The position numbers and the translations under genes were made by a program. Below the pieces are notes generated by a model. It had not been told where the DNA came from. It was given only the letters and a program-made list of their open reading frames with translations, and did no database searches. A stretch of DNA of 64,000 nucleotides from Planctomycetota bacterium (lineage in GTDB: Bacteria; Planctomycetota; Planctomycetia; Planctomycetales; Planctomycetaceae), in the NCBI GenBank assembly GCA_003388505.1, contig QQVO01000073.1:1-64000 (forward strand). The letters are read 5' to 3'. Of the stretch, positions 7,975 through 62,153 are shown one piece after another. The number at the start of each line of letters is the position of its first letter. The first letter of the stretch is position 1.

Positions 7975-8017
7975 CGGGTTGGCTGTATTGCGAATCCGTT
8001 GACGACGTGAATGGATG

Positions 8018-8048: not shown

Positions 8049-8112
8049 ATTGAGAGGCGTCGTGCGCGTCACACGACCTCCGTGGTTTCCGGCCGGCCAA
8101 CAGGCGACAACC

Positions 8113-8919: not shown

Positions 8920-8930
8920 CGCCGGCTCCG

Positions 8931-11060: not shown

Positions 11061-11090
11061 GGGAGATCTTTCCGTGGGGAGTTCCAGGCA

Positions 11091-11786: not shown

Positions 11787-11805
11787 TGGGCACGCGCCTC
11801 CGGTG

Positions 11806-11823
11806 ATTGTGAACAGTCACAAT
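11806..11823. promoter_or_regulatory. Palindrome upstream of the SGNH hydrolase gene
   Basis: ATTGTGA and TCACAAT form a perfect 7-bp inverted repeat around ACAG, about 20 nt upstream of the SGNH hydrolase start. It is the right size for a dimeric repressor or activator site and its half-site TGTGA is CRP-like. No regulator is encoded nearby. Confidence 0.4.
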
Positions 11824-11968
11824 AGGGAGCGCAATGCTAGATACGAGGGCGCCGGCTTTCCAGCCACTGAGCAGCAGCGGCGCAATCGGCTCGCTTTCGT
11901 CGATTGCCCCGACATCGACCACTGCGATCAGTGGTCGACCGCGTGAGGCGTCCCAAGGCGGGCTGCGT

Positions 11969-14452: not shown

Positions 14453-14601
14453 GCAGGATCGACCCGCGAAGTTGCGTAAGGTCCACTCGGCGGACCGAGT
14501 TGCGTGCGCCCGTCACTGAGTCGTCACTGAGTAATGGTCCGCAGACCGACCCTGCTGGAGCACGGCGGACCGTACAGCAACTGTGACGACGTTGCGACGC
14601 C

Positions 14602-15237: not shown

Positions 15238-15362
15238 GGCTGCGTCCTCCCTGCAGGGTTGGTCCGGCGCGTTCCTGCGCTGGATGCGTATGATTCGAGC
15301 GGATTCAAGTGGTCGGTCCCGTGTGTTGTGTCGGCTTTTCCACTGCGTCGACAGCGCCGCCC

Positions 15363-16259: not shown

Positions 16260-16514
16260 GCGTATCACATCCTGTGAGTTGACTCCCGGTTGCCGGCGGA
16301 GTTGAGGACGGCGTCCCGTCCCTCAATCCGCCTCTGGATTCGCATCGAGTTGAATGACGTCGCGTGGACAGAAAAGCCGAACGCAGATTAGGATGATTCG
16401 CATGAAATGTTAAAAATCCCGCAGATCTTGTCAATATGGGATCCCAGGCGACGGGAGTTTGCGGCCGCGCCGAGACCGCATCGATTCAGGCGCGCCTGGC
16501 GTCAACATGCGAAA

Positions 16515-46630: not shown

Positions 46631-46708
46631 CGATCTGTCTCGCGGAATCTCCGGTTCAAGAGCCTGAAAAACGCTCGACGCGGACACATGGTGGAGCAAA
46701 TTGCTCTA
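46631..46708. repeat. 78-bp dispersed repeat, copy B
   Basis: Counterpart of 23645-23722 (64 of 78 identical by hand count). Its terminal hairpin GGAGCAAATTGCTC ends in CTA, the stop codon of the minus-strand TPR gene, so the repeat abuts or slightly overlaps a coding region. Confidence 0.7.
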
Positions 46709-48397
46709 CTCGTCCTTCGATCCCCCCAGCGTCACGGTGATCTTGTATTCGGTCTGCAGGTGCGCGTGCGCCGTGCTCGCTTCTCCCGACTTGGGGTACT
46801 CCTTGCAGACCTTCTGGAATGCGAGAATCGCTTTCTCCTTCTGTTCCTGCTCTTCGTAGGTGCGGGCCGATTCAAGCTGGGCCCGCGGCGCTGCGGACGG
46901 CGCGCTGCCGATGATCCCGCCGTACAGCAGCAGGGCTTCGCCATACTCCTTGAGCGCCCGGTGGCAGGACGCCATGCGGAAATGCGTCTCCGGATAGTAT
47001 TCGTTGCACTGCCGGTAGTGCTGAATGGCTTCCTTGTACTGCCCCGCATGGTGATAGGTGTCCGCCAGCGCCCACAGCCAGGTGTCGATGTGCTCGACGT
47101 CCTGCTGCACGAGTTCGGTATAGATCGTGACGGCTTCGGGATAGTTGTGGGCCCAATGCCGCCAAGTCGCCGCCGCTTCGCCGATCCAGCGAAACGGCTC
47201 TTCCTCATCCTGCAGGCTCAACTGCCGATACGCCGCGACCGCCTGCTCGTAATTCTTCTCCTCGCGAAAACTGTTGGCGATCTGGTGCTTGCCTTCAACG
47301 TCGTCCTCGAAACGTCCATAAACGCTCCGCGCTGTCTCATATTGTCCGATCGACTTGTACCAGTTCCCCTGCCGCAACAGCGTCTCGTCGCTCGGACCGA
47401 AACGGCTGATGATTTGCTCATACGCGGCCTTCACCTGCGGCTCTCGTCCGGCCGCCGCCTGCAGATCGGCAACGGCATACCAGGCCGCTCGCGCGGCGTC
47501 TTCCAGTTCGGGGTCGGCGAGATCCTGCTCGATCCGTTCCTGCACCCAGGCCACGGCGCGATCGGCCAGACGCTCCGCCTGAGACGCCGTTTTCGAATCA
47601 GCCGCCAGCGTCCTGATCGGACCGCTGGCATACTGCACGACCTGCGGAATCAACTCGGTCGGCCCGTAGGTCGTCTCCAGCGCCTTGGCGCCGTCTTCGA
47701 AGTTGCCTTCCGAGAAGAAGTGCGAAGCGAGTTGCCGGGAGGCGTCGACGCAGATGCCCGCCACGTACCGGTTGTCGCGGGGCGTCTCGAACGTCAGTCG
47801 TTCCCACATCTCGAGCTGTGTCTCGACGTCCTCCTCACTCCGCGCGATCTCGATCATGTCGCGGGCGGCGTACGCGGCGATCTCGGCGTCGCCGTAGTCT
47901 TCGAACACGGTCGAATAGGCCTTTTTCGCTTTGCCGATTTCTCCCATGTCCTGGTACGTGCGCCCGATGTAATAGGCGGCCGTCATGGCGTCCGGAGACT
48001 CCGGCCAGTAGTCGATCACCGATTGAAATCCCTCGGTGATGGCCGTGTTGAGCTTTCGCAACTGCACCTGACACAGGCTCCATTTGAGCTGTGTGTAAGA
48101 GGCGACGGCGCTGTCTTCGTAGAGAGTGAGGAACTTCTCGTATTCCGCGGCGGCCGCTTTCCACTCGCTGCGCTCGTAATACTGCTCGGCCACTTTAAGC
48201 TGGAAGCGTTCCGCCTCCCGGATGTCGGGATAACGATCGAGCGCAAGCTGATCCAGACGCTGGGCGCTGGCCACAGACCCGCCGCACAGCACGAGCGCTG
48301 CGGTCAGGAGCATCGTTAAGGGCCGCGCGGCGGGCCGGTTTCCCGCAAACTGTCTCAGCGGGTCTGTCACGGCGCTTTGCGTCGCGAACTCAGCCAT
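46706..48397 (-). CDS. Exported TPR protein of the Exb-type operon
   Basis: 563-residue protein made almost entirely of tetratricopeptide-like helical repeats, for example ERFQLKVAEQYYERSEWKAA, then YIGRTYQDMGEIGKAKKAYS, and LLRQGNWYKSIGQYETARSVYG. A signal region (TMLLTAALVLCGGSVASA) precedes the repeats. ATG 48397 has GGAG at good spacing and overlaps the DUF4159 gene end by 31 nt. It resembles the YbgF/CpoB or BamD-like TPR proteins that act in cell envelopes, and is probably an adaptor. It is the last gene of the eight-gene operon. Confidence 0.88.
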   Translation of the reverse strand: MAEFATQSAVTDPLRQFAGNRPAARPLTMLLTAALVLCGGSVASAQRLDQLALDRYPDIREAERFQLKVAEQYYERSEWKAAAAEYEKFLTLYEDSAVASYTQLKWSLCQVQLRKLNTAITEGFQSVIDYWPESPDAMTAAYYIGRTYQDMGEIGKAKKAYSTVFEDYGDAEIAAYAARDMIEIARSEEDVETQLEMWERLTFETPRDNRYVAGICVDASRQLASHFFSEGNFEDGAKALETTYGPTELIPQVVQYASGPIRTLAADSKTASQAERLADRAVAWVQERIEQDLADPELEDAARAAWYAVADLQAAAGREPQVKAAYEQIISRFGPSDETLLRQGNWYKSIGQYETARSVYGRFEDDVEGKHQIANSFREEKNYEQAVAAYRQLSLQDEEEPFRWIGEAAATWRHWAHNYPEAVTIYTELVQQDVEHIDTWLWALADTYHHAGQYKEAIQHYRQCNEYYPETHFRMASCHRALKEYGEALLLYGGIIGSAPSAAPRAQLESARTYEEQEQKEKAILAFQKVCKEYPKSGEASTAHAHLQTEYKITVTLGGSKDE

Positions 48398-49833
48398 TTG
48401 CTGTACTCCACGTGCGAATAAAAGATCACGTTCGTGCCTAACTGATAGCACGCCTCGTAGATTTCCTTGGGAACGCCGGAATGGTCGTCGGTCCAGGCGT
48501 CGCCGATGTCTCCCGGGTGATAGTAACAGACCCAGCGCCCCTCAACCCGCCAGCCTAATGCGTCGGTGCCGCCGTGCGGCGCGACATACGGCAGGAAGGG
48601 AACCTGGTAGGGAACACGGTGAATCACGTCGTCCAGCGGAACCGGCACCGGGTCCACGTTGGGCAGCACGCGCCGCATCATGGCGACGAACTGATTGTGA
48701 AAGTGCCGGCTGCCGCCGTTGTCCCCGAACAGCATGCCGTGCTTCTCCAGCAGATACTCGCGCAGCACCTTCACCTCGTCGTTGGAGACGACGATGCTCT
48801 TCTGGCCCGTCATGTAGACGAGGGGGGGACTCTTCTCGGGGGGGAAGTTTGCCAGTTGAGAAATCAGCCGCGACTCGGTGCGCTCGGCGACCTTTTGTTT
48901 CGTCCGCAGCCCGTACTCGACCAGCATGTTCAGGTCGGCCCCGATCCCGAAGTCCTGATCCCAATCCCCCCCCTGGTATTCGAGCCGGATAAACCGCACG
49001 CGGCCCTGCGAGGTTCCGCCGGCGAATCCGGCGCCCGCGCCCTGGCCGTAACCGACCGTGTAGGCGTGTTCCGTGATCTCGTCGAACTGCAGCTTGACGT
49101 CGTCCAGGTCGCGAACGTTGAACTTGATCGAACTGAACGGATTGATGACGTACTTCTTCTGGATAACCCGTTGCACCTTCACCGTCTGGGCGATGGCCTG
49201 TTGTTGTCCGCCCCCGGCGGGCATCTCGTACACCTCGTGGCACCCGCCAACCTGGGTCAGCAGCATGAACACCAGTAGGAACGAGAGCGAATAACCCAGC
49301 AAGGTTGTCACCGACTGATTCAGCTTGCGGTTCTTCGTTCCGTAGTACCAGGCCTGCGTGTCTCGCGGGTCCCAGATCCGTTTCCCGGGCCGATCCTGCG
49401 CGTCCTGATCCGGCGTTCGCCGGCGTTGTCGCGCTCGATCGTAAGCAAACGAATCGACCCACCAGATCACCCAGGCCAGGCCGAGAACGAACACGATCGC
49501 AGTGCTGGCGCGGGCCAGCGTCGCCCGCAAGCCGCCCAAGCCGAATGCGTCGGCGACGAACACGCTGTACTGGCAGAGAACGACCGCGCAAGCGCTGGCG
49601 AACGCCGACGTCTTTTGCGAACTGCGGCGCTGGGGGCGCGTCCACCACCACAGCCAGACCAGTGACACGACGACGCCGGCCGTGAACACGCTCCAGGAAA
49701 CGACGCGGCCGACCAGGCCGGTCAACTGGTGGAAATACTGCCAATCCGCCCAGCAGGCCAGCCACAGCACTCCGAGCACACCGGTCGCGATCGTCGCCGT
49801 CCGGAGTTTCGATTTGTCAGGCTGGCCGACCAT
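48367..49833 (-). CDS. Membrane protein with C-terminal DUF4159 domain
   Basis: 488 residues. The N-terminal half has about five hydrophobic segments (VLGVLWLACWADWQYF, VVSWSVFTAGVVVSLVWLWWW, TAIVFVLGLAWVIWWV and so on up to residue 200). From about residue 280 the soluble part has RFIRLEYQGGDWDQDFG, LVYMTGQKSIVVSNDEVK and GMLFGDNGGSRHFHNQF, a DUF4159 pattern. The DUF4159 fold is thought to resemble glutamine-amidotransferase-like domains; activity is unknown. It overlaps the TPR gene downstream and is 58 nt from the small membrane protein gene upstream. Confidence 0.88.
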   Translation of the reverse strand: MVGQPDKSKLRTATIATGVLGVLWLACWADWQYFHQLTGLVGRVVSWSVFTAGVVVSLVWLWWWTRPQRRSSQKTSAFASACAVVLCQYSVFVADAFGLGGLRATLARASTAIVFVLGLAWVIWWVDSFAYDRARQRRRTPDQDAQDRPGKRIWDPRDTQAWYYGTKNRKLNQSVTTLLGYSLSFLLVFMLLTQVGGCHEVYEMPAGGGQQQAIAQTVKVQRVIQKKYVINPFSSIKFNVRDLDDVKLQFDEITEHAYTVGYGQGAGAGFAGGTSQGRVRFIRLEYQGGDWDQDFGIGADLNMLVEYGLRTKQKVAERTESRLISQLANFPPEKSPPLVYMTGQKSIVVSNDEVKVLREYLLEKHGMLFGDNGGSRHFHNQFVAMMRRVLPNVDPVPVPLDDVIHRVPYQVPFLPYVAPHGGTDALGWRVEGRWVCYYHPGDIGDAWTDDHSGVPKEIYEACYQLGTNVIFYSHVEYSKWLSSRRKAP

Positions 49834-49891
49834 AGGACTGGGAACATCTGTAACGAGTGAGGCGGGAGGCTGACGTCGTCAGCAGTGAAAA

Positions 49892-50380
49892 CTACTCGAC
49901 GCCGTCCAGCAGTGAATCGAGGTTGTTGTCCAGGGGATTCTCATCCGGCGCAGCCGTGCGCGTTTCATCGAGCCCCATCGCTTCGGTCGCTCGCTGCAGA
50001 TCGGGATCGCCGGTCGTCTCGGCGGCCAGCGGAGGCGTTGTTGCATTCTCCGCCGGTTGGCCGGCATCGTCACTTGAAGTCTCTGCCCTGGCCGGTGAAG
50101 CGGCGGCCTGCGGTTCGGTCCCGCCCATCCAGTACGGGATCAGAGTCAGCACGGCGACCAGCACCACGCACCCCACCGTCGCCTGCAAGATTCCCCGCAG
50201 CAGACTGCTCGACGACAGTTCGCCGAGCGTTTCCTGCGGACTCCGGCCCCGCAACCCGGCGATGAACTCCCGCAGTTCCTCGGCCGATGCGGCCGTCGAC
50301 GCTCGCACTCGCTTGCGGTCGCCCGTCATGCTCGTCAGCGGAGCCGTGCGCTCCTCGAATTCTTCGTTTCTGATCGCCAC
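49892..50380 (-). CDS. Single-pass membrane protein of the Exb-type operon
   Basis: 162-residue protein with a polar, probably cytoplasmic N-terminus of about 60 residues, one helix (LQATVGCVVLVAVLTLIPYWM), and a long acidic, Pro/Ala-rich exported tail that ends in DNNLDSLLDGVE. It starts at GTG 50380 with GAGGTG at 6-nt spacing. It is 21 nt downstream of the second exbD-like gene. The layout resembles a TonB- or PomB-like tether, but no TonB C-terminal domain is seen. No family recognised. Confidence 0.8.
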   Translation of the reverse strand: MAIRNEEFEERTAPLTSMTGDRKRVRASTAASAEELREFIAGLRGRSPQETLGELSSSSLLRGILQATVGCVVLVAVLTLIPYWMGGTEPQAAASPARAETSSDDAGQPAENATTPPLAAETTGDPDLQRATEAMGLDETRTAAPDENPLDNNLDSLLDGVE

Positions 50381-50401
50381 GGGTTCACCTCGATATTTGT
50401 C

Positions 50402-50809
50402 TTATCCATTGTTTCGTTCGTCGACGATATGCACCATTTCCCCCCCGGCCTCGCTGATCGCTTCGATCACCGGTTCGAACCGCTGGGCCAGGGTCTCCTT
50501 GTGGATTTTCAGCAGCACCGTGCGGCTACCGGCGGGACGGTCGCCGAGCAGACTCTCAATCCTGCCGCTCAGTTCAGCGACGCCAAGTTCGTCTCCATTG
50601 AGGTACAGGCGGTTGTCTTGATCCACGACGATGCTCACGAGCGAGTGTCCGGCATTCTCCAGGTTGGGCGCCTCGGCCGGCGACCATTGCAGATGGCTGT
50701 CGTCCTGGGAACGCGCAAGGATGACGAAGAAAATCAGCAGGTTGAAAGCGATGTCTCCCATCGCCATCGACGGCACCTCGGCTCGATGTTGTCGCCTTTT
50801 GATCTTCAT
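50402..50809 (-). CDS. ExbD/TolR-type protein 2
   Basis: 135-residue ExbD-type protein that, with an ExbB partner, uses the proton gradient to drive envelope work. Single N-terminal transmembrane helix MGDIAFNLLIFFVILARS; Asp19 at its start matches the essential proton-carrying Asp of ExbD/TolR. The soluble periplasmic domain ends with TVLLKIHKETLAQRFEPVIEAISEAGGEMVHIV, a typical ExbD strand-helix unit. It shares GDIAFNL(L/I) with the other ExbD-type protein. Confidence 0.9.
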   Translation of the reverse strand: MKIKRRQHRAEVPSMAMGDIAFNLLIFFVILARSQDDSHLQWSPAEAPNLENAGHSLVSIVVDQDNRLYLNGDELGVAELSGRIESLLGDRPAGSRTVLLKIHKETLAQRFEPVIEAISEAGGEMVHIVDERNNG

Positions 50810-50894
50810 CGTGACAGACCGGCCGCTCCGGACTCAATCAACAATTCCTCGTTCACAAACTTCCATTTCGGAACGCCTCTGCAGTGTCCGCATC

Positions 50895-50920
50895 TGTGCC
50901 CAAACAGAAGTTTGGGCACA
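50895..50920. promoter_or_regulatory. Perfect inverted repeat between the two ExbD-type genes
   Basis: TGTGCCCAAAC and GTTTGGGCACA form a perfect 11-bp inverted repeat around AGAA, in the 139-nt gap between the two exbD-like genes. No T tract follows on the minus strand, so it looks more like an mRNA hairpin or a protein-binding site than a terminator. Confidence 0.5.
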
Positions 50921-50948
50921 AGGTAAACACAATATGGCGCAAATCCGC

Positions 50949-51371
50949 TCATGGAACGACCACCTGTCGTTCTTCTTCAAGTTGCAGGGTAATCGTGCCG
51001 CCGGCGTCCTCGATCCGGCTGGTGAACTCAATCCAGCGGTCGTAAGGCAACTCCTTGTCGCTCTTCACAACGACCACACGATACTCCGGGCGGGTCTGCC
51101 CCTGCAGCCGCGCGGCGAGGACCGAATCAAACCGCGCCGGCTCGACAACCTCCCCGTTGACGATGACCGATGTGCGCGTCAACCGCACCTCGAGGTTCTG
51201 GTCTTCCTGTTCTTCGTCGACCGTTTCGCTGCTGGGGATGGTCTGTTTGCGTCCGCTGTCCGGCTGGACCGAAGCGCACACGAGAAAAAATACGATCAGG
51301 TTGAACGCAATGTCCCCCGTCGCCGATGTCGGCGGTTCGACAAGCAGGTCTCGACGGCGGCCTGATCGCAT
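50949..51371 (-). CDS. ExbD/TolR-type protein 1
   Basis: 140-residue ExbD-type protein. One transmembrane helix TGDIAFNLIVFFLVCASV with Asp20 at the position of the proton-carrying Asp. The periplasmic part includes VRLTRTSVIVNGEVV and RVVVVKSDKELPYDRWIEFTSRIEDAGGTITL. It differs from the second copy by a longer acidic linker after the helix, so the two are not recent duplicates. It follows the ExbB-type gene at 75 nt. Confidence 0.9.
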   Translation of the reverse strand: MRSGRRRDLLVEPPTSATGDIAFNLIVFFLVCASVQPDSGRKQTIPSSETVDEEQEDQNLEVRLTRTSVIVNGEVVEPARFDSVLAARLQGQTRPEYRVVVVKSDKELPYDRWIEFTSRIEDAGGTITLQLEEERQVVVP

Positions 51372-51446
51372 CTCACTTTCGGGCTACAAGTTTTTGGGAA
51401 CAGCGGCGGCTTCGCGACAGTTCTGTTCGTCCGCCGCCGCCATCGG

Positions 51447-52340
51447 TCAAGTCGACTCTGCGGAAACCGCCTCCCGTTTCTCCAACGCCATCTGCAGCGT
51501 CACCGCTTCGATCAACTCCGTTGCGGACTCTTCGACTTCCAGAACGAATGCATTGATCACGCCGGAGAAGTAGTTGAACGCCACGAACGCCGGCAGACCG
51601 ACGATCAGTCCGAACGCGGTCGTGAGCAGGGCGACGCTGATTCCGTCCGCCGCCGCTTCCACGATATTGGTTTCGCCCATCTGGGCGACGATGTCGCGGA
51701 ACGACGTAATCATTCCGGCCACCGTACCCAGGAATCCCAGCGTGGGAGCTGCGCTCGAAACGGTCGCCAGAATCGGCAGATGCTTCTCCAGCGCCGCAGT
51801 GACGTGCACGCCGTAGTCGTCCATCGACTTGACCACCTGCTCCTCAATCTTCGCAGGGTCGTAATCAAGCCGATCCAGAACCAGAAACTTCCTCAGACCT
51901 GCAGAGAGGATCGCGGCGACCGGTCCCTGTTCGCGATCGCACAATTGCAGCGCCTCCTCGACGCGATCCTGCTGAAGGAGTTCAAGAACCTCGCGCCGCA
52001 GGCGACTCGAGTCTGTTCGCAGCATTTTCAGACTGCGGAACCGCTCGATCATCACTCCGGCGGCGATGACGCCCATGATGAGAATCGGCCACATGAACAG
52101 CCCCCCCTGCCGCATCAGCCCCAAGGCGCCGCTGTCGAGGATGCGGTCCATCGCGCCCGGCGTCTCTTCGGAGACGACCGGCTCGGAGTCGGGCGACGGT
52201 TGATCGGCTGCCGGAACAGCATCCGCCGCCTCTTCCGCAGCGGGCGCGGAAGTCTCTGTCGACTCCGTGTCGGCCGCTTCGGGGGGACCGGAGGGCGGCT
52301 GGAACATCGCCAGCGTTGCTAACAACAGGAGACTCTGCAT
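51447..52340 (-). CDS. ExbB/TolQ/MotA-family proton channel protein
   Basis: 297-residue protein. A hydrophobic N-terminus (MQSLLLLATLAMFQ) and a Pro/Ala/Glu-rich linker precede a first channel helix (LFMWPILIMGVIAAGVMIERF, about 81-101). The two conserved channel helices are at about 190-212 (APTLGFLGTVAGM) and 233-253 (GISVALLTTAFGLIVGLPA). This is the ExbB/TolQ type, forming a proton-driven complex with ExbD-type partners encoded by the next two genes. The cleavable N-terminal region is longer than in E. coli ExbB. Confidence 0.93.
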   Translation of the reverse strand: MQSLLLLATLAMFQPPSGPPEAADTESTETSAPAAEEAADAVPAADQPSPDSEPVVSEETPGAMDRILDSGALGLMRQGGLFMWPILIMGVIAAGVMIERFRSLKMLRTDSSRLRREVLELLQQDRVEEALQLCDREQGPVAAILSAGLRKFLVLDRLDYDPAKIEEQVVKSMDDYGVHVTAALEKHLPILATVSSAAPTLGFLGTVAGMITSFRDIVAQMGETNIVEAAADGISVALLTTAFGLIVGLPAFVAFNYFSGVINAFVLEVEESATELIEAVTLQMALEKREAVSAEST

Positions 52341-52381
52341 GACAGCTTGGAATCAATCACAAGTGGGGACATCGAGGGAGA

Positions 52382-55300
52382 CTATTGATTTTCGATACTG
52401 TTGGCCTCGGACTCGAACTGCTGGAGCATCTCGGGCAGGGCCAACCGGCCTCGCGCGTACTTGGCTGCTTCACTCGCCGGGAAGTCCCAGCGGCAGCGGT
52501 TGTAACGCCGGAACGCTTCCGAGTTGTTGCCCCCCATGCGGTAGCTCTCTCCCGCCCAGAAGAGCGAGTCGGGGGCAAGCTGATCTTCGGGGAAGTCCTT
52601 CGCGAATCGGTCGAACGCCGTGCCGGCAGTCGTGAACTCTTCCGCCTTGTAGAAACATTGGCCGATGCGAAACGCGATCCGCGACGCGTGCTGATGGCTC
52701 TCAAAGCGCTCCAAAAACTTCTCGCCAACCTGGGCGGAAATGGAATACTCCTCCGCCTTGTAGAAGTGGTCGCAGATGCGGATCATCACGCTCGCAATCA
52801 GCGGACTCTTGGGGTAGGTCGCCGCCAGCGTCACGTAGGCTTCGAGCGCTTCGTCGAAGTCGCCCCGCTCTTCATACGACTGCGCCAGCTTGTACTGCGC
52901 GTCCGGTGCGAGCGAGTGCTCGGGGAACTGGTCGATGATTAACTGGTAGGCGCTGACCGCTTCGTCCCAGTCTTCCAGTTCCTGGGCGAATTGACCGAGC
53001 AGATAGGCGATTCGCGGCACGTACTTCGGATCCGGGTAGTCTTCCATCACTTCCCGCAACACGCGCCGGCCGGCTTCGAGGTCCGCCTGCTGATCGGTGT
53101 CGCGCCCCAGTTCCTTATGGCTCTTGAACAGTTCGAAGTAACTCTCCGCAATGGTGAACTTCGTTTCGACGGCGAGGTTCTCGTCGTTGAACGTCTTGCT
53201 GAAGGCGGCCACCAACCCGTCGGTCCCGATCACGACCGGAATCTGCCGCTCCAGAGTGGCGGTCCCCTCCTCGGTGCTTGCGGCCGGATCGGTGTAGCTC
53301 GCCCGAATCGTGTCGCCGAAGTAGCACTCCAGGAACGGATCGTCGGGCTTCAGGTTGTCGAGGGTCGGTTCGCCGGACGACTTCAGCGTCAGCGATCCGG
53401 TGAAGATCCCAGTGTGGGCGAGGGTTTCGTAGAGTTCGACCACTTCGTGCTCGCCAAACTCGGTTGTGATCTCGACCTGCACCGAGTCGCGCTCATCAGA
53501 CTGGTCCTGGTCGGGGTCGGTGACCATCAGGAAGATCTTCTCGCCGACGTGCAGTTCCGCGACGTCCAGATCATAGTCCCGATCGGTGCAGCGCAGCTCT
53601 CCGGTGGAGATCAATCGCCCCCGCGCTTCGAGCAAGGGCGGACCGCCCGGCAGGCGCGCCTCGTCCCGGTAACTCGCCACAATCGCATCCTTCCCGGTCA
53701 GGTTCAGCACGCGCGTCACCAGGTTCACGTTGCCGATGTCGGAATCAGACTCGTCCACCGTGCGCCCGATGAGGTCTCTGGGCATCTCGGCCGTCACCGG
53801 CACAAGCTGCGGGCTGTCTTTCCCGCCGAGCTGCATGATGACCTGTCCGATGAAGCGGCCCTCCTCGAGCGCAATCACGTCGGCCACGTCACGTGGAAGT
53901 TGACGGCTGCTGCCTGAGAATGCGCCCGAGAGTTCGCAATGCACGTCGACCGTTGCCCCCTCCGGAGTCGAGAGCGTGACGGTCACTTCGCTCCGGCTGT
54001 CCCGTGCGGCGTCCGGGTCGATCACCTCGACGGTCAGCGGCGCTTCGAAGGCGACATGGCTGACCGGCTGATCGGCCGCGGCAGGCTGGTAAGTGAACCG
54101 CGAGGGAATTCCCCGCCGCTCATCTCCGGGAATCACGCGCGTTTCCAGAATCCGCACTTTGCCCGCCGACGGGGTGTTGACGAACACCACCGACTCGCGG
54201 GGGACGGCGTGTCCCGGGAACGTGTTTTGAGAGTCGATGTACCGCACGTAAATGCGATCACCCGGCTGCACCTGGAACTTGCCGTCTTCCGCCTCGGCCG
54301 ACGTATCGATCTCCTTGCGGAACCGGCCGGTGTAGCGCTCGGTTTCCGTGGCGGTCAGTTCGACCGGTTCCCCGTCATTGACGATCACATCGAACTTGGC
54401 CGTGTCCTGACCGGCCGTCTGATCGAGATCGTAATCGATGATCTCGACGACGAATCGTTTGCCCGGATCGATGCGCATGATCCGCTTGGGAATCTCGACG
54501 ACGTTCCCGTTCCTCTGGCGTTCGAAGTCATAATCGATCGCGGCAACCGCCGCGTTGTAGTAAGTCGCCGTGAGCCGTTCCGAAAGCAGCCGGCTCCCGG
54601 CGTCGTCCCGGTGGGTGAACTCGTCGCTGTACGATCCGGTGACTACGTCCCCGCCGGCCAGTTCCAGCACGTTGTTGGTCGCGAGCGTGAGCAGATCGGC
54701 CTCGCTCGGAATGTGCACGTCGCCTGGCTCTTCGCCGGTGATCTCAATCGTGCTGATCGCGACCGCCTCTCCCACGTACTCGTCGACCTGGAACTTGATG
54801 TGCCGCAATTCGAGCGGTTCAAATGCGAAGGTCCACTCATTGGGGGCAAAGTCCGCCAGCGCGTCCTCGCGGGGCAGAGCAGGCCGCACCCGGTCGCCTT
54901 CGATCTCAAAATCCGCAGCCCGGAAGGGAAGCAGCGTGACTCGCCCGGCGTCCGGATCGGCGCGGGCAATGTTCGCAGACACCCCTTGCGCTCCGTCGGT
55001 TGTCGAGGCGAAGATCGTCAGATCGTGGCTGCCGCGCTCCAGCCAGAGATCGATCGTGCGATTGCCGGCGCCGACAGGAAGTTCGAGCCGCCCGTCGATC
55101 CACAGCGCCGACCGCACGCCGCGAATCAGTATCCTGGCCGCGCCGTCTCGCTCCTGGACCAGCTTGCCGTCCCAGAGCACTGCATATGGCCCCGCCGTCG
55201 TCTCGCCGTCCGGGGGCAGGGTCTGCCACTCCAGCGTGTCGACCTCGGTTTCCTCGAGCGGCGTTGCATTGCGACTGACGCTCAACACCTGATTCCACTG

Positions 55301-58300
55301 CGAAAGATTGTTGTAGTTCCCTTCAAAGACGCGCTGCTTCATGCGGCCGAATTCATCGACGCTCGCCTCCGGCTGCTCGACCGGCGGGTTGCTCGCAATC
55401 CGGAACCAGAATTGCCCGTCGTGACTGCCGTACAGTTCACCGCGAACCGGCGTGTGGCGGTCGGCGTTCGGTGAGGCGATGCGGACGCGCGAGACGACCT
55501 TCAGGTCTTTCATATCGACCGACAGCCACTTCGGCGAAGCGCCGTCCGGTTCGCTCATCCAGAAGGTCTCCGGATCCTGGTCGATCGCCATCACCGGGCT
55601 GTGCTCGATCGCGGTGTCGCTCGCCAGAGCGCCCGCCGGCAGTTCCGCCGTGGGAACCGTCCCCTCAAAGATGCCTGTATGAGAGCCGGTTTCTTCCAGC
55701 GTCACCTGCACGCTGTCGCCGCTCTCGGCGTCGAATTTGACCACGATGCCGTCTGCCGCGTCGGACAGGTCCCGGTCGGGATCGTCGACGCGAACATAAA
55801 TCGGATTCCCCGGCTTGATCTGGCTGGCGGGCCGCACGTCGGAGTACCTGCGATTTCGCTCGCGTTCCCGCGCCTCGCGCTCCAACCGCTCGCTGAACGT
55901 TTCCTCTTTCTCATCAATAATGCGGCTGCTGGCGATCCGCAAGCGGCCGTCCGACGCCACGCGAATCTCCACGTCGGACAGCGGCACACTCTTGAACTCG
56001 AGCTTGAAGTCGTCGGCGTAGTCTGACCGGACGATATCCTCGCCGCTGAGCTGCAGCACCCCGTCCCCGGCAGTGACCTGACCAAGCTGCGTCTCCAGGT
56101 CGGCCCGGAACAGTCCTTTGCCGGCGCCGCCGCTGGTGAGATAAATCTGTTCCCGGTCGCCGCCCGGCTCGGTGGTGACAATCACCGGGATCCGGCTGTG
56201 TCCCCGGCTGATGCCGAGGTCGCTGTCCTGCACCACGATCGACAGCGGCGTCCCCGGCGAATGCGTGCGCTTGCTGTTGCGGCCGAGTCGTCCCACCGTC
56301 CGCAGCAGGTTCAACTGATCGATGTAGCGTTCTTCATCCCCGTAAACTTCCGCCAGGTTGAACAACGCCTGATTCGCCAGTTCGATGTTCGGCACGCGTT
56401 CCAGCACGTTGCGGAAAATCTCCCGCGACTCGTCCTTGTCCCCTCGGCGGTACGCCACCACGCCCCGCAGGAATTCCGCCCGGACCACGATGTCGGATTC
56501 GCGGCTGCCGGCCAGCTTCTCAAACACCGCCTCGGCCTGATCGTAGACCTTCTGCGCCATGAACGCCTCGCCGATCCCGAACTCCGCTTCGATCGCCTGC
56601 GGAGTGTCGGGAAACCGGTTGAGCACCGACGTGTACTCGCTGCGGGCGATGTCGTAACGGCGAGCCCGGTCGAAATTCTTCGCCAGCAGCAACTGCACGT
56701 TTGCCTTCGTGGCGTCATCGAACTGCGGGTTTTCGCTGTGCTTGATCATCCAGCCCCGCAGCACGTCTTCCACGTACTCGTGGTTCTCGTCGCCCCCGGC
56801 GGCGATCAGACTGTCGCACACGAACAGCAACAGATCGACCGGCACTTCATCGCGGTGCTCATCGAACAGCGTCTTGTTCTCGACGTAACCGTCCAGCGCC
56901 ATGTCCCGGTCGCCGAGCCGCAGATAGAGCGCCGCCTGCAGCAGCGGCGCAACCGGGCTGTCTTCGTCGATCGTGAGCCCCACCGCCCCCAGCCGCGAGT
57001 AACTCTGTGCGACAATCGCGCGCCCGGCGTCGCGGCGGCTGTCGTTGATGTTCGGAATGTTGGCCAACATCCCGCTGGCCAGCGTGGCGGCCGAGAGATA
57101 GTCATTCTCCGCCAACCGCGCCTGCAGATAGGGAACCAGGGTGTCCCAGTCATAGGTGGAGTTGTCGACCATCCGCGTCACGGCGGCAAGTTGGCGAAGC
57201 CGGTCGACCGGTGCAGTCGCCTCGGGATTCTGGTTCAGGTCCATCAGAGAAAGCGTCGCCATCGCAGACGGCCTGCCGATCTCCATGTCCCGAACCGCCG
57301 CAAAAATGCGGGACTTCACGTCGTCGGCCGCTTCCTCATCGGCCCGGTACTGCTCAACCCAACTCCGCGCCGGCTGCTCTTCAACGCCCCAAGGCTGAAG
57401 CGGTCGCCCTGCCTGCCGAGCCCGCGATGTCGTCAGAATCGACTCGAACTGGTCGAGGTCGCCCGCTTTCAGAGCCAGGTCAGCCAGTTGCGTGGCGTAC
57501 CATCCGTGGTAGTCCGAATCGATCTGCAACCGTTCTGCAAGAAACGCCTGCTGCGCCGCCGGATCGTCCATCCTTCTCAAGAGCCGTTCGGCGCAAAGCC
57601 GCGAGTCGTTGTGATTCGGGTCGACGTCGAGATGGCTGCGCCAATAGGCCTCCGCCTCCGCCGTCAGTTCCAGATTCACGAGCAAGTCGCCGATGTAGTA
57701 GGCATAGGTCAGACTCGGGCCGAACGTCTCCTCCGCCGATTGAATCCACGTCAAAGCCTGACGCGCGAGGTCGGCGTCGGTGCTCTGGGTCGCAGCCAGC
57801 ATCAGCCGGCGAAGCACATCGGCGTTGTTCGATGTCGGCTCCAGGCCGATCAGGTGCACGGCCGCTTCGCGCGCCAACTCAGGCGGGCCGTAGTCGGTCG
57901 CGGCTGAGAGCCAATTGATCGCCGCATCGACGTCCTCGGGGAATCGCCGCACCAACAGACCGTAGGCGGGCACGCTCTCTGGGCGCTGTTCGCTCGGAGT
58001 GTAGTTTCTGAGGTAATAGGCGTTGCGTTCGAGCAGAACCCGCGCCATGGCGTCGTTCATCTCGGCGACTTTGCCGGTCTTGATCAATTGGTCGCGGGCC
58101 GGTTGCCCCTCCGCCCTCGGCTGTTCCGCCGCGACCCACGCCTGGACGAACGGGTCCGCCGCAAGCTGTTCGGCCTGCCGCTGAGCGATCTCGGCCCGCG
58201 CCTTCGTTTCCTCGTTGCCGGCCGCGCTCTTGGCCCAGGCCTCCAGTGTGCCTCGCAGCGAAGACAGGTGCAGGTTCGCCCGGATCATCTGCACGACCAG

Positions 58301-59704
58301 CATCACGTCCTGCTGGAACTGCTGATCCGACTCCGCACTGGTCAGCAGATACGCCACCGCCTGTTGCGTGTAGCTGTTGTCCGTCGGCGTCTCGGAGACG
58401 AGTTGCCGCAATACGGCCCGCGCCGCCGGAACGTCTTCCAGCCGGTCCCGGTGAACGTTGAAAGCCAGGACATAGCGCAGGTACGCCTTGTCCGAGGGGT
58501 TCGGATTCCGCTCAACGGCCGCCGCCAGCGCCGCCGCAGCCGCCATGTTTTCGGCCGGCTCATTCGGCGTTTGCTCAACGTAGTAGTAGGCGTTTGAACC
58601 GGACACGGCGTCGAATTCGAGCAATCGCCCGAACGCGGCGCGGGCCTGAACAGCGTCGCCGGCCGCCCGATACTTCATGGCCAGAGCCGCCTGCATCGCG
58701 AAGCGTTCCGTTCGGTCGGGATACTTCAGTGTGAACTCCTCGACAAGCGGGGCCATGTCGGCCGGGGTGGAGGTGGCGTCGTTGGAAAGCGCGACGATCA
58801 ATCGTTGGTGAACGTCGATTTCGTCCTCGACCGCCCGCGCCTTGCGAAACGATTCCACAGCATTCGCCCACTGCGACTGACGCCCGAAGTTCTCACCCGT
58901 GGTGTAGTGCACCCATCTCTGTTGTTCCGGCGTGAGCTGCAAACCTCTGCTGAGCGCCACCGCCCCGACGGCGTTCGATCGGGCCCACTCATTGCCGCGG
59001 TTCCACTGAGTCATCGACTGCTGGACCATCACCTGCGGCAACGGACCGTCCGGCAGCTTCTCCACAAGCTCGGCCGCCAGTTCCGCGCTTTGTGTGAACA
59101 CCGGCTTGCTGTTGACGATTGCATACAGTTCGACGGCACGGACCGCATGCCGGATGCCCACGTCATTGGCCCCATGCCGCCGCCAGATCGCGCGGTGCGC
59201 GTCGGCTGCGGCGGCGTAGTCGGTCGACTCATCCAGCGTTGCCGCCAGTCTCAATTCGATGTCGGCCGCCTCCGCCGCCTCGGGATACCGCTGCAGAAAC
59301 TGGCGGCAGTACGAGGCGTGGTCCGTGTTCCGCGAGGTCGCTTCCAATCCGTCGATCAGCTTCAGCATCACTTCCTTGTGCCGTTCGTCGGGCGAATGAA
59401 CCGCCACAAATCGCTGTGCCACGCGGGTCAGACCGAAGACCCGGCCATGCTCGTAGTACAGGTCGACAAGCTGCACCATCACGTCCGCCGCTTCCGGAGA
59501 AGTCTCCTTGTACTTGCCGAGTTCCGCCTCGAGACGGCTGGCTATCGCGTTCACAGGATCTTCCTCGCCTTGCGTCTCGGCATCGGCGTCAGCCGCCGAT
59601 TCCTGCGCGAAGGCCGAACCCGCAAGCATCAGACACGCCACAGCCGTGCCCAGGATCAAACAAGGCGAAAAACGACCCCTCAGTCGGCGACTTGTCCGTT
59701 TCAT
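52382..59704 (-). CDS. Giant 2440-residue exported TPR protein with beta-repeats, discoidin-like and PA14-like modules
   Basis: The signal region is RFSPCLILGTAVACLMLAGSAFAQ. TPR-type helical repeats extend to about residue 1120. Then come beta-rich units with the pattern DxDxD...D...V...ETxxHTGxFxG, near 1150, 1301-1350 (VDDPDRDLSDAADG, ETGSHTGIFEGTV), 1755-1800 (IIDYDLDQTAGQDTAKF), 1891-1920 and 2051-2100 (TDPDQDQSDERDSVQ, ETLAHTGIFTGSL). Between the first and later units lies a discoidin-like piece (about 1350-1420, PKWLSVDMKDLKVVSRVRI) and a PA14-like piece (about 1465-1600, FEGNYNNLSQW). C-terminal TPRs occupy about 2200-2430. I start at 59704; a longer version would overlap the previous gene. 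Probably an outer scaffold or ligand-binding partner of the ExbBD-type motor. Confidence 0.88.
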   Translation of the reverse strand: MKRTSRRLRGRFSPCLILGTAVACLMLAGSAFAQESAADADAETQGEEDPVNAIASRLEAELGKYKETSPEAADVMVQLVDLYYEHGRVFGLTRVAQRFVAVHSPDERHKEVMLKLIDGLEATSRNTDHASYCRQFLQRYPEAAEAADIELRLAATLDESTDYAAAADAHRAIWRRHGANDVGIRHAVRAVELYAIVNSKPVFTQSAELAAELVEKLPDGPLPQVMVQQSMTQWNRGNEWARSNAVGAVALSRGLQLTPEQQRWVHYTTGENFGRQSQWANAVESFRKARAVEDEIDVHQRLIVALSNDATSTPADMAPLVEEFTLKYPDRTERFAMQAALAMKYRAAGDAVQARAAFGRLLEFDAVSGSNAYYYVEQTPNEPAENMAAAAALAAAVERNPNPSDKAYLRYVLAFNVHRDRLEDVPAARAVLRQLVSETPTDNSYTQQAVAYLLTSAESDQQFQQDVMLVVQMIRANLHLSSLRGTLEAWAKSAAGNEETKARAEIAQRQAEQLAADPFVQAWVAAEQPRAEGQPARDQLIKTGKVAEMNDAMARVLLERNAYYLRNYTPSEQRPESVPAYGLLVRRFPEDVDAAINWLSAATDYGPPELAREAAVHLIGLEPTSNNADVLRRLMLAATQSTDADLARQALTWIQSAEETFGPSLTYAYYIGDLLVNLELTAEAEAYWRSHLDVDPNHNDSRLCAERLLRRMDDPAAQQAFLAERLQIDSDYHGWYATQLADLALKAGDLDQFESILTTSRARQAGRPLQPWGVEEQPARSWVEQYRADEEAADDVKSRIFAAVRDMEIGRPSAMATLSLMDLNQNPEATAPVDRLRQLAAVTRMVDNSTYDWDTLVPYLQARLAENDYLSAATLASGMLANIPNINDSRRDAGRAIVAQSYSRLGAVGLTIDEDSPVAPLLQAALYLRLGDRDMALDGYVENKTLFDEHRDEVPVDLLLFVCDSLIAAGGDENHEYVEDVLRGWMIKHSENPQFDDATKANVQLLLAKNFDRARRYDIARSEYTSVLNRFPDTPQAIEAEFGIGEAFMAQKVYDQAEAVFEKLAGSRESDIVVRAEFLRGVVAYRRGDKDESREIFRNVLERVPNIELANQALFNLAEVYGDEERYIDQLNLLRTVGRLGRNSKRTHSPGTPLSIVVQDSDLGISRGHSRIPVIVTTEPGGDREQIYLTSGGAGKGLFRADLETQLGQVTAGDGVLQLSGEDIVRSDYADDFKLEFKSVPLSDVEIRVASDGRLRIASSRIIDEKEETFSERLEREARERERNRRYSDVRPASQIKPGNPIYVRVDDPDRDLSDAADGIVVKFDAESGDSVQVTLEETGSHTGIFEGTVPTAELPAGALASDTAIEHSPVMAIDQDPETFWMSEPDGASPKWLSVDMKDLKVVSRVRIASPNADRHTPVRGELYGSHDGQFWFRIASNPPVEQPEASVDEFGRMKQRVFEGNYNNLSQWNQVLSVSRNATPLEETEVDTLEWQTLPPDGETTAGPYAVLWDGKLVQERDGAARILIRGVRSALWIDGRLELPVGAGNRTIDLWLERGSHDLTIFASTTDGAQGVSANIARADPDAGRVTLLPFRAADFEIEGDRVRPALPREDALADFAPNEWTFAFEPLELRHIKFQVDEYVGEAVAISTIEITGEEPGDVHIPSEADLLTLATNNVLELAGGDVVTGSYSDEFTHRDDAGSRLLSERLTATYYNAAVAAIDYDFERQRNGNVVEIPKRIMRIDPGKRFVVEIIDYDLDQTAGQDTAKFDVIVNDGEPVELTATETERYTGRFRKEIDTSAEAEDGKFQVQPGDRIYVRYIDSQNTFPGHAVPRESVVFVNTPSAGKVRILETRVIPGDERRGIPSRFTYQPAAADQPVSHVAFEAPLTVEVIDPDAARDSRSEVTVTLSTPEGATVDVHCELSGAFSGSSRQLPRDVADVIALEEGRFIGQVIMQLGGKDSPQLVPVTAEMPRDLIGRTVDESDSDIGNVNLVTRVLNLTGKDAIVASYRDEARLPGGPPLLEARGRLISTGELRCTDRDYDLDVAELHVGEKIFLMVTDPDQDQSDERDSVQVEITTEFGEHEVVELYETLAHTGIFTGSLTLKSSGEPTLDNLKPDDPFLECYFGDTIRASYTDPAASTEEGTATLERQIPVVIGTDGLVAAFSKTFNDENLAVETKFTIAESYFELFKSHKELGRDTDQQADLEAGRRVLREVMEDYPDPKYVPRIAYLLGQFAQELEDWDEAVSAYQLIIDQFPEHSLAPDAQYKLAQSYEERGDFDEALEAYVTLAATYPKSPLIASVMIRICDHFYKAEEYSISAQVGEKFLERFESHQHASRIAFRIGQCFYKAEEFTTAGTAFDRFAKDFPEDQLAPDSLFWAGESYRMGGNNSEAFRRYNRCRWDFPASEAAKYARGRLALPEMLQQFESEANSIENQ

Positions 59705-59798
59705 TCCCTCGCTCTCAATGGAGATTCGAGAAATGTGTCTCATGTTCTGTATCCCGTGTGTGGAGCGTTCAATCGCGGCAGCAGCGAATCCAGACTCT

Positions 59799-62153
59799 CT
59801 ACTGCGCGGCAGCGGCCAGCGCATCCGAGATTTTCTTGGCGTCGGTCGCCAGCGGGCTTTCGGGGTAGTCCTGAATCAACTGGTCGAACTTCTGACGCGC
59901 CTCCGCCCGACGATTCATCCGGTACAGACAGCGCCCGTAGTTGAACAGGATCACGTCGAGAAACCGCGCGTCGGGGTGGTTTCCGAGCACGGTCTCAAAC
60001 GTGTCGATGGCGCGGGAGTAATCCTGCTGCCGGTAGTAGTAGTTCGCCATCTGGGCGACGGCTTCTCCCACACGCCCGCTCTCCGGAAAATTGTCGAACA
60101 CGCGTTTGTATTCCTGAAACGCGCGATCATAGAGTTGCGCGGCGGCGCCTTCACTGTTCCGCTCCGCCGCGTCATCGCCCATCTGTTCATAGCACTGGGC
60201 GATCCCGAACTGCGCCTCGCCGCGCAACTGGCTTTCCTCCATGTTCACCAGCCGCGTGTAGATGCCGATCGCTCTCGTCAGCGCGCCTTGAGCACGGGCC
60301 ACGTCGGCGAGTTGCAGCAGCGCATCGTCGACGAAGCCGCTGTTGGGAAACTCCCGCTGCAGCCTCTCCGCCATCGCGGCGGCGAGTTCCAGCTTGTCGG
60401 TCTCAAAATAAATCTTCCACAACTGCACATAAGTCTCTTCCAGCAGTTTCCCCCTCAGCCGCGTCGCGTCCTGAACGATGTCTTCGCAGACGGCCAGCGC
60501 CTGGTCGTACTTCTCCTGGGCGTTCGTCTTGAGCCCGAACTCCTTGTAACGATTTCCAATGTTCGTCAGCGCATCGGCCGTCCGAAGCTGCGTCCGGATG
60601 CGCAATTCCTCGTCCGAGATCGCCGCCCGCGTCACCCGCACGCCGCCCAGGTTGCCCTCGATACACCTGGCTTCGAAGGCCACTTCCCGTTCGCCCCGCC
60701 CGGTAAACCGCTCGTCCAGATAACGCACGCGGACGACGTCCCCCGGCAGCGCCTGCAGCACGTCGTCGCCGGGCTCTCCCGCCTCGCCGATCGCGAGCGG
60801 CACGGTCGTACGAAAGATTCCCGAGTGCACAACGCCGTCGGTCTCTTCGCTCGCAGCGTCGGCCGGAGACTCCGCCGGAACATCCTGATCCGTCGCTTCG
60901 CCCGTCAGCGACTCCGGCGGCAGGCCGCTCAGTGTGACGACCGATCGCTCAACCGGCGTCTCCGTCAGATTCACCGAGACTTCATCAACCTTCTTGAACG
61001 GATCGATTTCGGTGGGATCCTGCTCCGAATCGCCGTCGTCGTCGTTGCTCGTCGCGGCGGCGATCTGCTCCGCTTCGAGTTCCTCATCGGACTTCAGCCG
61101 GAACAATTCCACAACCGCTGAGACGCTGTCCGCCGCATCCTTCAGATCCCGATCGGCGTCGATCACCTGCAGGTTGAGCGGCTTGCCCAACACAACGCCC
61201 CGCAGGACTTCCTGAAAGGCCCCGTCGTTGATGGTCACGGTCGCGTTGCCGACGACGGTGACCTCTTTCAACCGCGGCTGGTCGAACTGTTTGTCCGCAG
61301 TATGCCGGTCGACATACTCAACGTGAATGACGTCGTCTCCCTTCACTTCGAGCGTTCCATTCTCCGGTTCCGGCCGCCCCAGTCGCGTCGCGATGCTGCC
61401 CAGCACGATCCGCACGTTCCGTCCCACCGCAAAACACTCGACGATCTCCTCATCCCCCTGGGTCGTCGTCGCCTTCACCTTCACCGCTTCTCCCGGCTCG
61501 ATCGCGGCCAGGTCCGCGTCTTCAATCCGGATAAAGAACCGCTTCCCCGCCTCCAGCTTTTCGACCTGCTCGTCGTCGTCGTTGAGCGCGGTCCCCACTT
61601 TTTCCAAAGCTTCGATCGCCCGGCTGTAATGCCCCAACTGAAAATGTCCCAGCCCGATGTAGTAGTACGCCTCGTTCACCTGTGGGCTGACCGGGAACTG
61701 TTCGATGACGTCCCGCATCACCTGAAACGACTTGCCGTAATTGCGAGCCTCATAGAAGCACACGCCCATCTTCAGCGTCGCCTCTGCCCGCTGGGCTTCG
61801 TCCCGGTTTTCTTCCGAGGCAATTTCTTCAAAGTAGGTGCGGGCCCGGTCATACGCGCGTTCCTGCTCCAGAAAGTAGTCGCCGAGCCGCATCTGCGCGT
61901 CGAATCGATACCGGCTCCGCGGATACCGTTCCACAACCGACTGCCAGATCTCAACGGCCTTCGATGCTTCTTCCGCCTCGTAGCGGGCGTCCCCTGCCTC
62001 AATCAGTTTCCGCGCGGCCCGGTCTTCGACGAGTGAGCCGCGCACTGCCATGGAATCGTCTGCGGACTCGGAGTCCGCTGTCTGGGCCAGAACGTTCCCC
62101 CAGCAACACGAAACGATACAGCAGGTGATGACCGCGTGACGCATAACACTCAT
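59799..62153 (-). CDS. Exported TPR protein with beta-repeat insert, first gene of the Exb-type operon
   Basis: 784-residue protein. Signal peptide MRHAVITCCIVSCCWGNVLAQ, then TPRs (about 30-190), a beta-rich middle of about 350 residues, then TPRs to the end. The middle has the same kind of units as the giant protein: DVIHVEYVDRHT, LQVIDADRDLKDAADSVSAVV and VHSGIFRTTVPL. The first ATG at 62180 is possible, but 62153 gives a normal signal length. It lies 94 nt upstream of the giant gene. A terminator of the DUF1501 gene lies just upstream, so the operon promoter is probably in the 62154-62203 region. Confidence 0.87.
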   Translation of the reverse strand: MSVMRHAVITCCIVSCCWGNVLAQTADSESADDSMAVRGSLVEDRAARKLIEAGDARYEAEEASKAVEIWQSVVERYPRSRYRFDAQMRLGDYFLEQERAYDRARTYFEEIASEENRDEAQRAEATLKMGVCFYEARNYGKSFQVMRDVIEQFPVSPQVNEAYYYIGLGHFQLGHYSRAIEALEKVGTALNDDDEQVEKLEAGKRFFIRIEDADLAAIEPGEAVKVKATTTQGDEEIVECFAVGRNVRIVLGSIATRLGRPEPENGTLEVKGDDVIHVEYVDRHTADKQFDQPRLKEVTVVGNATVTINDGAFQEVLRGVVLGKPLNLQVIDADRDLKDAADSVSAVVELFRLKSDEELEAEQIAAATSNDDDGDSEQDPTEIDPFKKVDEVSVNLTETPVERSVVTLSGLPPESLTGEATDQDVPAESPADAASEETDGVVHSGIFRTTVPLAIGEAGEPGDDVLQALPGDVVRVRYLDERFTGRGEREVAFEARCIEGNLGGVRVTRAAISDEELRIRTQLRTADALTNIGNRYKEFGLKTNAQEKYDQALAVCEDIVQDATRLRGKLLEETYVQLWKIYFETDKLELAAAMAERLQREFPNSGFVDDALLQLADVARAQGALTRAIGIYTRLVNMEESQLRGEAQFGIAQCYEQMGDDAAERNSEGAAAQLYDRAFQEYKRVFDNFPESGRVGEAVAQMANYYYRQQDYSRAIDTFETVLGNHPDARFLDVILFNYGRCLYRMNRRAEARQKFDQLIQDYPESPLATDAKKISDALAAAAQ

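What the first reader, a model, noticed from the sequence alone, without database searches (positions are those of the whole stretch)
46706..62153. Eight-gene ExbB/ExbD-linked TPR operon: a candidate undescribed envelope machine
One strand carries, in order, a TPR/beta-repeat protein, a 2440-residue TPR giant, an ExbB-type channel, two ExbD-type proteins, a single-pass protein, a membrane DUF4159 protein and another TPR protein, with gaps of -31 to 139 nt. ExbB and both ExbD proteins keep key channel features (APTLGFLGTVAGM; Asp at the start of GDIAFNL). Known ExbBD users such as TonB, Tol-Pal and gliding motors have different partners; no TonB C-terminal domain, TolB or Pal is seen. I infer a proton-driven complex linking the inner membrane to long extracellular or periplasmic TPR scaffolds, specific to this lineage.
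Basis: partly seen in the sequence, partly recalled or inferred. Interest (0 to 1): 0.85.

Follow-up and report, generated by a model that had tools for sequence, protein, structure and literature searches.

The report
Conserved eight-gene ExbBD envelope-machine operon
A block of eight neighbouring genes, kept in the same order across two bacterial phyla, encodes a probable proton-powered inner-membrane motor (ExbB plus two ExbD proteins) joined to very long exported scaffold proteins; no paper found describes this combination, so it looks like a new, untested kind of force-applying machine in the cell envelope.

Summary
On the minus strand, 62153-46706, eight genes encode: A, TPR+beta protein; B, about 2440-residue TPR/beta giant; C, ExbB; D and E, two ExbDs; F, single-pass protein; G, five-helix DUF4159 protein; H, exported TPR protein. 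Gaps run from -31 to 139 nt. The order is strongly conserved: C-D-E-F-G was in order in all 61 named loci where all five were found (42 labelled Planctomycetota or unassigned, 19 Verrucomicrobiota), and full A-H order occurs in both phyla. So it is a real unit, but not lineage-specific. Channel residues (ExbD Asp; the ExbB threonines matching TolQ T145/T178) are invariant. The window's genome has no TonB C-terminal domain and no TonB-receptor plug; TolB is absent from all 61 family genomes searched, so this is neither Ton nor Tol-Pal. A distant form of the operon has, at F's place, a short protein with a TonB/TolA-type transmembrane His; the window's form lacks it. Best reading: a proton-driven envelope machine acting on a long CpoB-like TPR/beta giant. 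The motor class is known; this partner set was not found in the papers searched. Its job remains inferred.

The parts
59799..62153 (-). Gene A: exported TPR - beta-domain - TPR protein (784 aa; signal peptide ...GNVLAQ)
   Evidence: local similarity to B (E 3e-19)
52382..59704 (-). Gene B: about 2440-aa giant; signal peptide, TPR-rich N-terminal part, chain of beta-sandwich domains with an F5/8C (CBM32-like) domain, C-terminal TPR superhelix like CpoB/YbgF (longest ORF starts at 59824)
51447..52340 (-). Gene C: ExbB/TolQ-type channel subunit (297 aa, acidic N-terminal extension)
50949..51371 (-). Gene D: ExbD-type subunit 1, channel Asp20
50402..50809 (-). Gene E: ExbD-type subunit 2, channel Asp in GDIAFNL
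49892..50380 (-). Gene F: single-pass protein: conserved cytosolic segment, one TM helix, disordered Pro/Ala-rich linker, conserved C-terminal NPLDxxLDxLLD-type peptide; no TM histidine
48367..49833 (-). Gene G: five TM helices + DUF4159 domain (class I glutamine-amidotransferase-like fold, no invariant cysteine inside the domain)
46706..48397 (-). Gene H: exported TPR protein (signal peptide; overlaps G by 31 nt)
44835..46472 (-). Gene I: lipoprotein (lipobox AAGGC) with F5/8C domain; next gene downstream in a few relatives only, optional accessory at most
62274..63530 (-). Gene J: DUF1501 protein; frequent upstream neighbour in the family, not regarded as part of the machine

Best explanation
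The operon encodes one machine. ExbB (C) forms a pentameric proton channel around a pair of ExbD subunits, probably a D/E heterodimer. Proton flow past the ExbD Asp and ExbB threonines moves the ExbD pair and ExbB against each other. F and G sit in the inner membrane beside the motor; F's disordered tail ends in a conserved acidic/leucine-rich peptide and G places a probably non-enzymatic amidotransferase-like domain in the periplasm, and together they hand the motion to exported TPR proteins (H, A, and the CpoB-like C-terminal TPR of B). Giant B, with its chain of beta-sandwiches and a CBM32-like glycan-binding domain, is the load: a long scaffold pulled on or re-positioned against the cell wall, outer membrane or surface glycans. 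Shown here: gene content, order conservation, channel residues, predicted folds of G and of half of B, export signals by eye, absence of Ton/Tol partners. Inferred: complex formation, D/E pairing, proton drive, TPR-peptide docking, force on B, glycan load.
For: Eight-gene order kept across two phyla with variable flanks. Two distinct ExbD types in every aligned close-form copy. Invariant proton-path residues that align with ExbD D25 and TolQ T145/T178. No TonB_C and no Plug in the window's genome; no TolB_N in 61 family genomes. In the distant form of the operon, the protein at F's place has a TM helix with a TonB/TolA-like His (e.g. SIIAHAALLGGTS) in nearly every copy where it could be picked out, plus a short tail with a conserved end. 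B's C-terminal TPR best matches the CpoB/YbgF TPR domain (2xev, Z 19.9, rmsd 2.2 over 124), its F5/8C region matches a CBM32-type domain (8ayr, Z 16.8, rmsd 2.0 over 122), and its beta chain finds the Nitrosopumilus S-layer first. G's domain matches 4i66 (Z 23.0, rmsd 1.9 over 186).
Against: The window-type F lacks the TM His in 70 of 71 copies, so TonB-style docking on ExbB is not supported for this subtype and the coupling route is unknown. Order conservation shows joint inheritance, not a physical complex. No complex prediction or experiment was possible. In at least three genomes (G042, G006, G031) the block is split A-B-C | D-E-F-G-H. No outer-membrane anchor is universally encoded. A signal peptide does not say whether B stays in the periplasm or reaches the surface.
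Confidence: 0.6

Rival explanations
1. It is a surface-motility or surface-polymer-moving motor of the Agl-Glt kind: the ExbB/D/E motor drags TPR/beta scaffolds and bound glycans along the envelope, giving gliding or laying down a coat.
For: Same motor recipe, one TolQ-like and two TolR-like proteins, with exported TPR proteins and a TPR giant, as in AglRQS-Glt (PMC3169522); S-layer-like beta chain and CBM32-like domain in B.
Against: No OM beta-barrel and no FHA-TonB protein in the operon; orthology to Agl/Glt proteins was not tested; no motility phenotype known for carriers.
Confidence: 0.18
2. It is a Tol-Pal substitute for outer-membrane constriction at division in bacteria that lack TolB.
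For: TolB_N absent in all 61 family genomes; ExbB closest to TolQ among NCBIfam and PDB models; CpoB-like TPR in B.
Against: Patchy distribution, 17 of 61 family genomes, does not fit a general division role; no Pal-like peptidoglycan-binding protein in the operon.
Confidence: 0.1
3. It energises outer-membrane uptake (Ton-type) for large nutrients.
For: ExbB/ExbD homology; glycan-binding-like domain in B; TonB_C is somewhat more common among carriers (7 of 17) than non-carriers (5 of 44) in the family.
Against: Window genome (98.8% complete) has no TonB_C and no Plug domain; 10 of 17 carriers lack TonB_C; no receptor in the operon.
Confidence: 0.07
4. The eight genes are co-inherited but not one machine: a channel used as sensor or signalling device beside unrelated secreted scaffolds.
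For: Split arrangement A-B-C | D-H in a few genomes; loss of the TM His in F.
Against: All 61 testable loci keep C-D-E-F-G order in both phyla while flanks vary.
Confidence: 0.05

Closest known systems
PVC vWA force-transducer operons (TPR + tolQ + two tolR + TM-vWA protein; PMC12204202)
   Same: PVC bacteria, one TolQ and a pair of different TolR-like proteins, a TPR gene, a TonB/TolA-like TM-His protein (present in the distant form of our operon). The window's genome also carries a vWA-type locus (L207).
   Different: No vWA protein here; instead a short-tailed F, a five-helix DUF4159 protein, a 2440-aa TPR/beta giant, a second TPR/beta protein and a trailing TPR protein. DUF4159 is not mentioned in that paper.
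Myxococcus xanthus AglRQS-Glt gliding machinery (PMC3169522)
   Same: One TolQ + two TolR motor; several exported TPR proteins; a giant TPR protein (GltI, 4132 aa, no signal peptide listed).
   Different: No OM-barrel or FHA-TonB component; our giant is exported and carries beta-sandwiches and F5/8C; DUF4159 has no listed counterpart. Sequence orthology not tested.
Tol-Pal (TolQRAB-Pal-CpoB)
   Same: TolQ-like ExbB; CpoB/YbgF-like TPR; a TolA-like TM helix in the distant form.
   Different: No TolA C-terminal domain, TolB or Pal; two ExbDs; giant scaffold.
ExbBD-TonB
   Same: ExbB/ExbD with conserved proton-path residues.
   Different: No TonB_C or TonB-dependent receptor in the genome; window-type F lacks the TM His.
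DUF4159 family, structure 4i66 (Hoch_4089, Haliangium ochraceum)
   Same: Fold of G's periplasmic domain (Z 23).
   Different: G adds five TM helices and is tied to an ExbB/ExbD operon; no function for either was found in the library searched.

Membership tests
ExbB/TolQ-ExbD/TolR proton-channel motors | MotA_ExbB and ExbD family match | tested here: met
   PF01618 91.5 bits; PF02472 57.3 and 56.1 bits, all above cut-off
ExbB/TolQ-ExbD/TolR proton-channel motors | TM Asp in ExbD and channel threonines in ExbB | tested here: met
   Invariant in all aligned copies; align with ExbD D25 and TolQ T145/T178
ExbB/TolQ-ExbD/TolR proton-channel motors | Proton flow and 5:2 assembly | not testable with these tools
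   Needs biochemistry or complex structure
Ton system | TonB C-terminal domain and TonB-dependent receptors | tested here: not met
   None in the window's genome
Tol-Pal system | TolB | tested here: not met
   TolB_N in 0 of 61 family genomes
Tol-Pal system | Pal | tested here: inconclusive
   None among the operon's proteins; not searched genome-wide
PVC vWA force-transducer operons | vWA protein with TonB-like TM helix beside tolQ-tolR-tolR | tested here: not met
   No vWA family match among the eight proteins; a vWA-type locus is elsewhere in the genome
TonB/TolA-type transducer (F) | TM histidine of the SHLS-type motif | tested here: not met
   Absent in 70 of 71 window-type F proteins; present in the distant-form proteins at the same place
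AglRQS-Glt gliding machinery | One TolQ and two TolR genes together | tested here: met
   Genes C, D, E
AglRQS-Glt gliding machinery | Orthologues of Glt proteins (GltG, GltJ, OM barrels) | tested here: inconclusive
   No OM-barrel, FHA or TonB domain among the eight proteins; direct comparison with Glt sequences not made
Class I glutamine amidotransferase-like (G domain) | Fold | tested here: met
   4i66 Z 23.0; GATase-type chains at Z 8-9.5
Class I glutamine amidotransferase-like (G domain) | Catalytic nucleophile Cys | tested here: not met
   The only invariant Cys (C198) is juxtamembrane; none is invariant inside the domain in 52 copies
Anti-phage motor systems (Zorya and other PADLOC families) | PADLOC model match | tested here: not met
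   No match for seven of the eight proteins; B not scanned

The most novel reading that the evidence does not exclude
A previously undescribed class of proton-driven envelope machine, shared by Planctomycetota and Verrucomicrobiota, in which a heteromeric ExbB/ExbD/ExbD motor works through a short-tailed transducer and a DUF4159 membrane protein on a giant exported TPR/beta glycan-binding scaffold, with TPR-peptide docking replacing the TonB/TolA C-terminal domain.
Probability: 0.45. Interest if true: 0.8.

Novelty: new variant of a known kind. Interest (0 to 1): 0.62.

Why it matters
How PVC bacteria without TolB, and often without TonB, deliver energy to their outer envelope is open. A tightly conserved, motor-bearing operon with a giant exported partner gives a concrete candidate, ties the uncharacterised DUF4159 family to a proton-driven motor, and suggests that TonB/TolA-like transducers can work without the classical C-terminal domain. 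It can be tested by gene removal in any cultivable carrier.

Tried and rejected
Lineage-specific origin: rejected. Ton and Tol-Pal membership: rejected on missing partners. Anti-phage motor (Zorya etc.): no PADLOC match (B not scanned). G as an active amidotransferase: no invariant domain Cys. F as a canonical TonB-like helix: rejected for the window's subtype but supported for the distant form. Gene I (lipoprotein) as a constant ninth part: found downstream in only 3 of 52 testable named loci. Transfer between phyla: a quick G tree nested Verrucomicrobiota inside Planctomycetota, but the four-gene careful tree has a very long branch to the outgroup, so root and direction are unsettled; only the single Verrucomicrobiota clade (100/99) is firm. 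Promoter/terminator scan gave no more than chance. Paper searches for DUF4159 or Hoch_4089 found nothing.
Full report
WHAT IS THERE. The minus strand of the window carries eight genes between 62153 and 46706. A is an exported TPR protein with a beta-domain middle; B is a giant of 2440 residues (the longest ORF is 2480, but the start at 59704 is followed by a clean signal peptide, MKRTSRRLRGRFSPCLILGTAVACLMLAGSAFAQ); C is an ExbB/TolQ; D and E are two different ExbDs (29% identical); F is a single-pass protein; G is a DUF4159 protein; H is an exported TPR protein. Gaps are 94, 41, 75, 139, 21, 58 and -31 nt.

IS IT MORE THAN CHANCE. G orthologues at 49-61% identity or better occur in 17 of 61 sampled genomes of the same family, the window's own included. 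Reading the surrounding DNA showed the order A-H, on one strand, in L036, L037, L040, L041, L042, L044 and L045, with the other loci ending at contig edges, missing a gene, or split. A scan of named genomes found 159 relatives of G; the best 80 lie in Planctomycetota and, at 46-52% identity, in Verrucomicrobiota. With profile HMMs of each gene, C-D-E-F-G were in order in all 61 loci where all five were found (42 of them labelled Planctomycetota or unassigned, 19 Verrucomicrobiota), B-H were in order in 42, and A-H in 14 Verrucomicrobiota loci (the flank was too short to reach A in most planctomycete ones). The gene after H varies from genome to genome, so the unit ends at H; the gene before A is often a DUF1501 protein in the planctomycete family. 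In G042, G006 and G031 the block is split into A-B-C and D-H; in G049 C stays with D-G, while A, B and H are not beside it.

A DISTANT FORM. Sixteen of 392 phylum genomes have a G-like hit at E<=1e-20, and 21 of 338 sampled Verrucomicrobiota do. Two of the former (the window's own genome and G274) and two of the latter (G440, G761) are the close form; the rest is a diverged version. In the longer planctomycete loci its order is H'-A-B-C-D-E-F'-G. There F' is a 120-220 residue protein whose TM helix holds a histidine in a TonB/TolA-like setting (FTVVVHVLFIGVFS, SIIAHAALLGGTS, SLAAHVAVLGLTS), followed by a disordered tail ending in a short acidic peptide and no globular C-terminal domain. In a third variant (L197, L198) the F-like segment sits towards the end of a multi-helix protein and also keeps the His. 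The window's form keeps the F architecture and a conserved C-terminal peptide (NPLDxxLDxLLD type) but lacks the His in 70 of 71 copies. So the transducer-like helix is ancestral or widespread, and the window's subtype has altered it. That F and F' are homologous rests on position, architecture and my reading of the TM segment, not on a significant profile match.

THE MOTOR. All 35 aligned ExbDs have the Asp that aligns with E. coli ExbD D25; the ExbB threonines that align with TolQ T145 and T178 are invariant. A functional proton channel is therefore likely, though not shown. The window's genome (98.8% complete) has several other ExbB/ExbD loci, one with the published vWA arrangement. It has no TonB C-terminal domain and no TonB-receptor plug domain, and TolB is absent from all 61 genomes of the family searched.

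THE PARTNERS. G is predicted as five TM helices followed by a class I glutamine-amidotransferase-like domain (pLDDT 82.6); the best solved match is Hoch_4089 from Haliangium (4i66, Z 23.0, rmsd 1.9, 186 residues). No cysteine is invariant inside the domain in 52 copies, so enzymatic amidotransfer is unlikely. The C-terminal 1200 residues of B fold as a chain of beta-sandwiches followed by a TPR superhelix (pLDDT 83.7). The TPR part matches the CpoB/YbgF TPR domain best (2xev, Z 19.9, rmsd 2.2 over 124); one beta domain matches a CBM32-type domain of an Akkermansia enzyme (8ayr, Z 16.8, rmsd 2.0 over 122; that the matched domain is CBM32-type is my own reading); Foldseek ranks the Nitrosopumilus S-layer protein first for the whole model, but with a poor global TM-score, which means similar building blocks rather than the same overall shape. 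B is best conserved at residues about 900-1450 and 2200-2480.

MECHANISM. The simplest account is a proton-driven motor in the inner membrane with exported TPR and beta scaffolds as its load, F and G being the transmission. Shown: gene set, order, channel residues, predicted folds, absence of Ton/Tol parts. Inferred: one complex, D/E heterodimer, proton drive, docking of the F tail or G domain onto TPRs, and a glycan or envelope load for B. Rivals are an Agl-Glt-like surface motor, a Tol-Pal substitute, a Ton-type uptake energiser, and co-inherited but separate parts.

WHAT IS KNOWN. A 2025 survey describes, in PVC and other bacteria, TPR + tolQ + two tolR + a TM-vWA protein as a new class of force transducer (PMC12204202); it does not mention DUF4159. 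The Myxococcus gliding machinery uses one TolQ and two TolR with TPR partners, including a 4132-residue TPR protein (PMC3169522). No paper in the library searched mentions DUF4159 at all; the library lacks most subscription journals. The finding is therefore a new variant of ExbB/ExbD-powered envelope machines, with an unusual set of partners and a wide but patchy PVC distribution.

LIMITS. No complex could be modelled, no experiment exists, and nearly all named carriers are metagenome-assembled genomes, so some gene absences and taxon labels may be assembly artefacts. Verrucomicrobiota copies form one clade (100/99), but where the root lies, and so whether the operon moved between phyla, is unsettled.

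Noticed in passing
L207 (own genome C21:102000-121900), 5155-9675: A vWA-type force-transducer locus of the published PVC kind: TM-His vWA protein, TPR protein, ExbB, two ExbDs.
   Followed up: partly
L206 (own genome C6), about 6531-13526: ExbB plus two ExbD-type genes followed by a 1221-aa FHA + PQQ beta-propeller protein; no family for the 311-aa TM protein before them.
   Followed up: partly
L208 (own genome C5), about 2809-9600: ExbB plus two ExbD genes behind a 1141-aa protein with weak TPR signal and a 365-aa TPR protein.
   Followed up: partly
L203 (own genome C12), 10597-16284: ExbB-like gene beside a 1070-aa TPR protein and an ABC-permease-like protein; no ExbD match anywhere on this contig in the genome-wide ExbD search.
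   Followed up: no
window 44835-46472 (-): Lipoprotein with an F5/8C domain directly downstream of the operon; the same gene follows H in a few relatives (L036, L040, L045, L119).
   Followed up: yes
L200, downstream of E: Two DUF4159 genes of about 530 aa in tandem in one distant-form operon.
   Followed up: no
L197 and L198, between E and G: F-like segment with TM His towards the end of a multi-helix membrane protein of about 370 aa.
   Followed up: partly
family genomes: TonB_C is more frequent among operon carriers (7/17) than non-carriers (5/44), Fisher p 0.026, uncorrected for relatedness.
   Followed up: no
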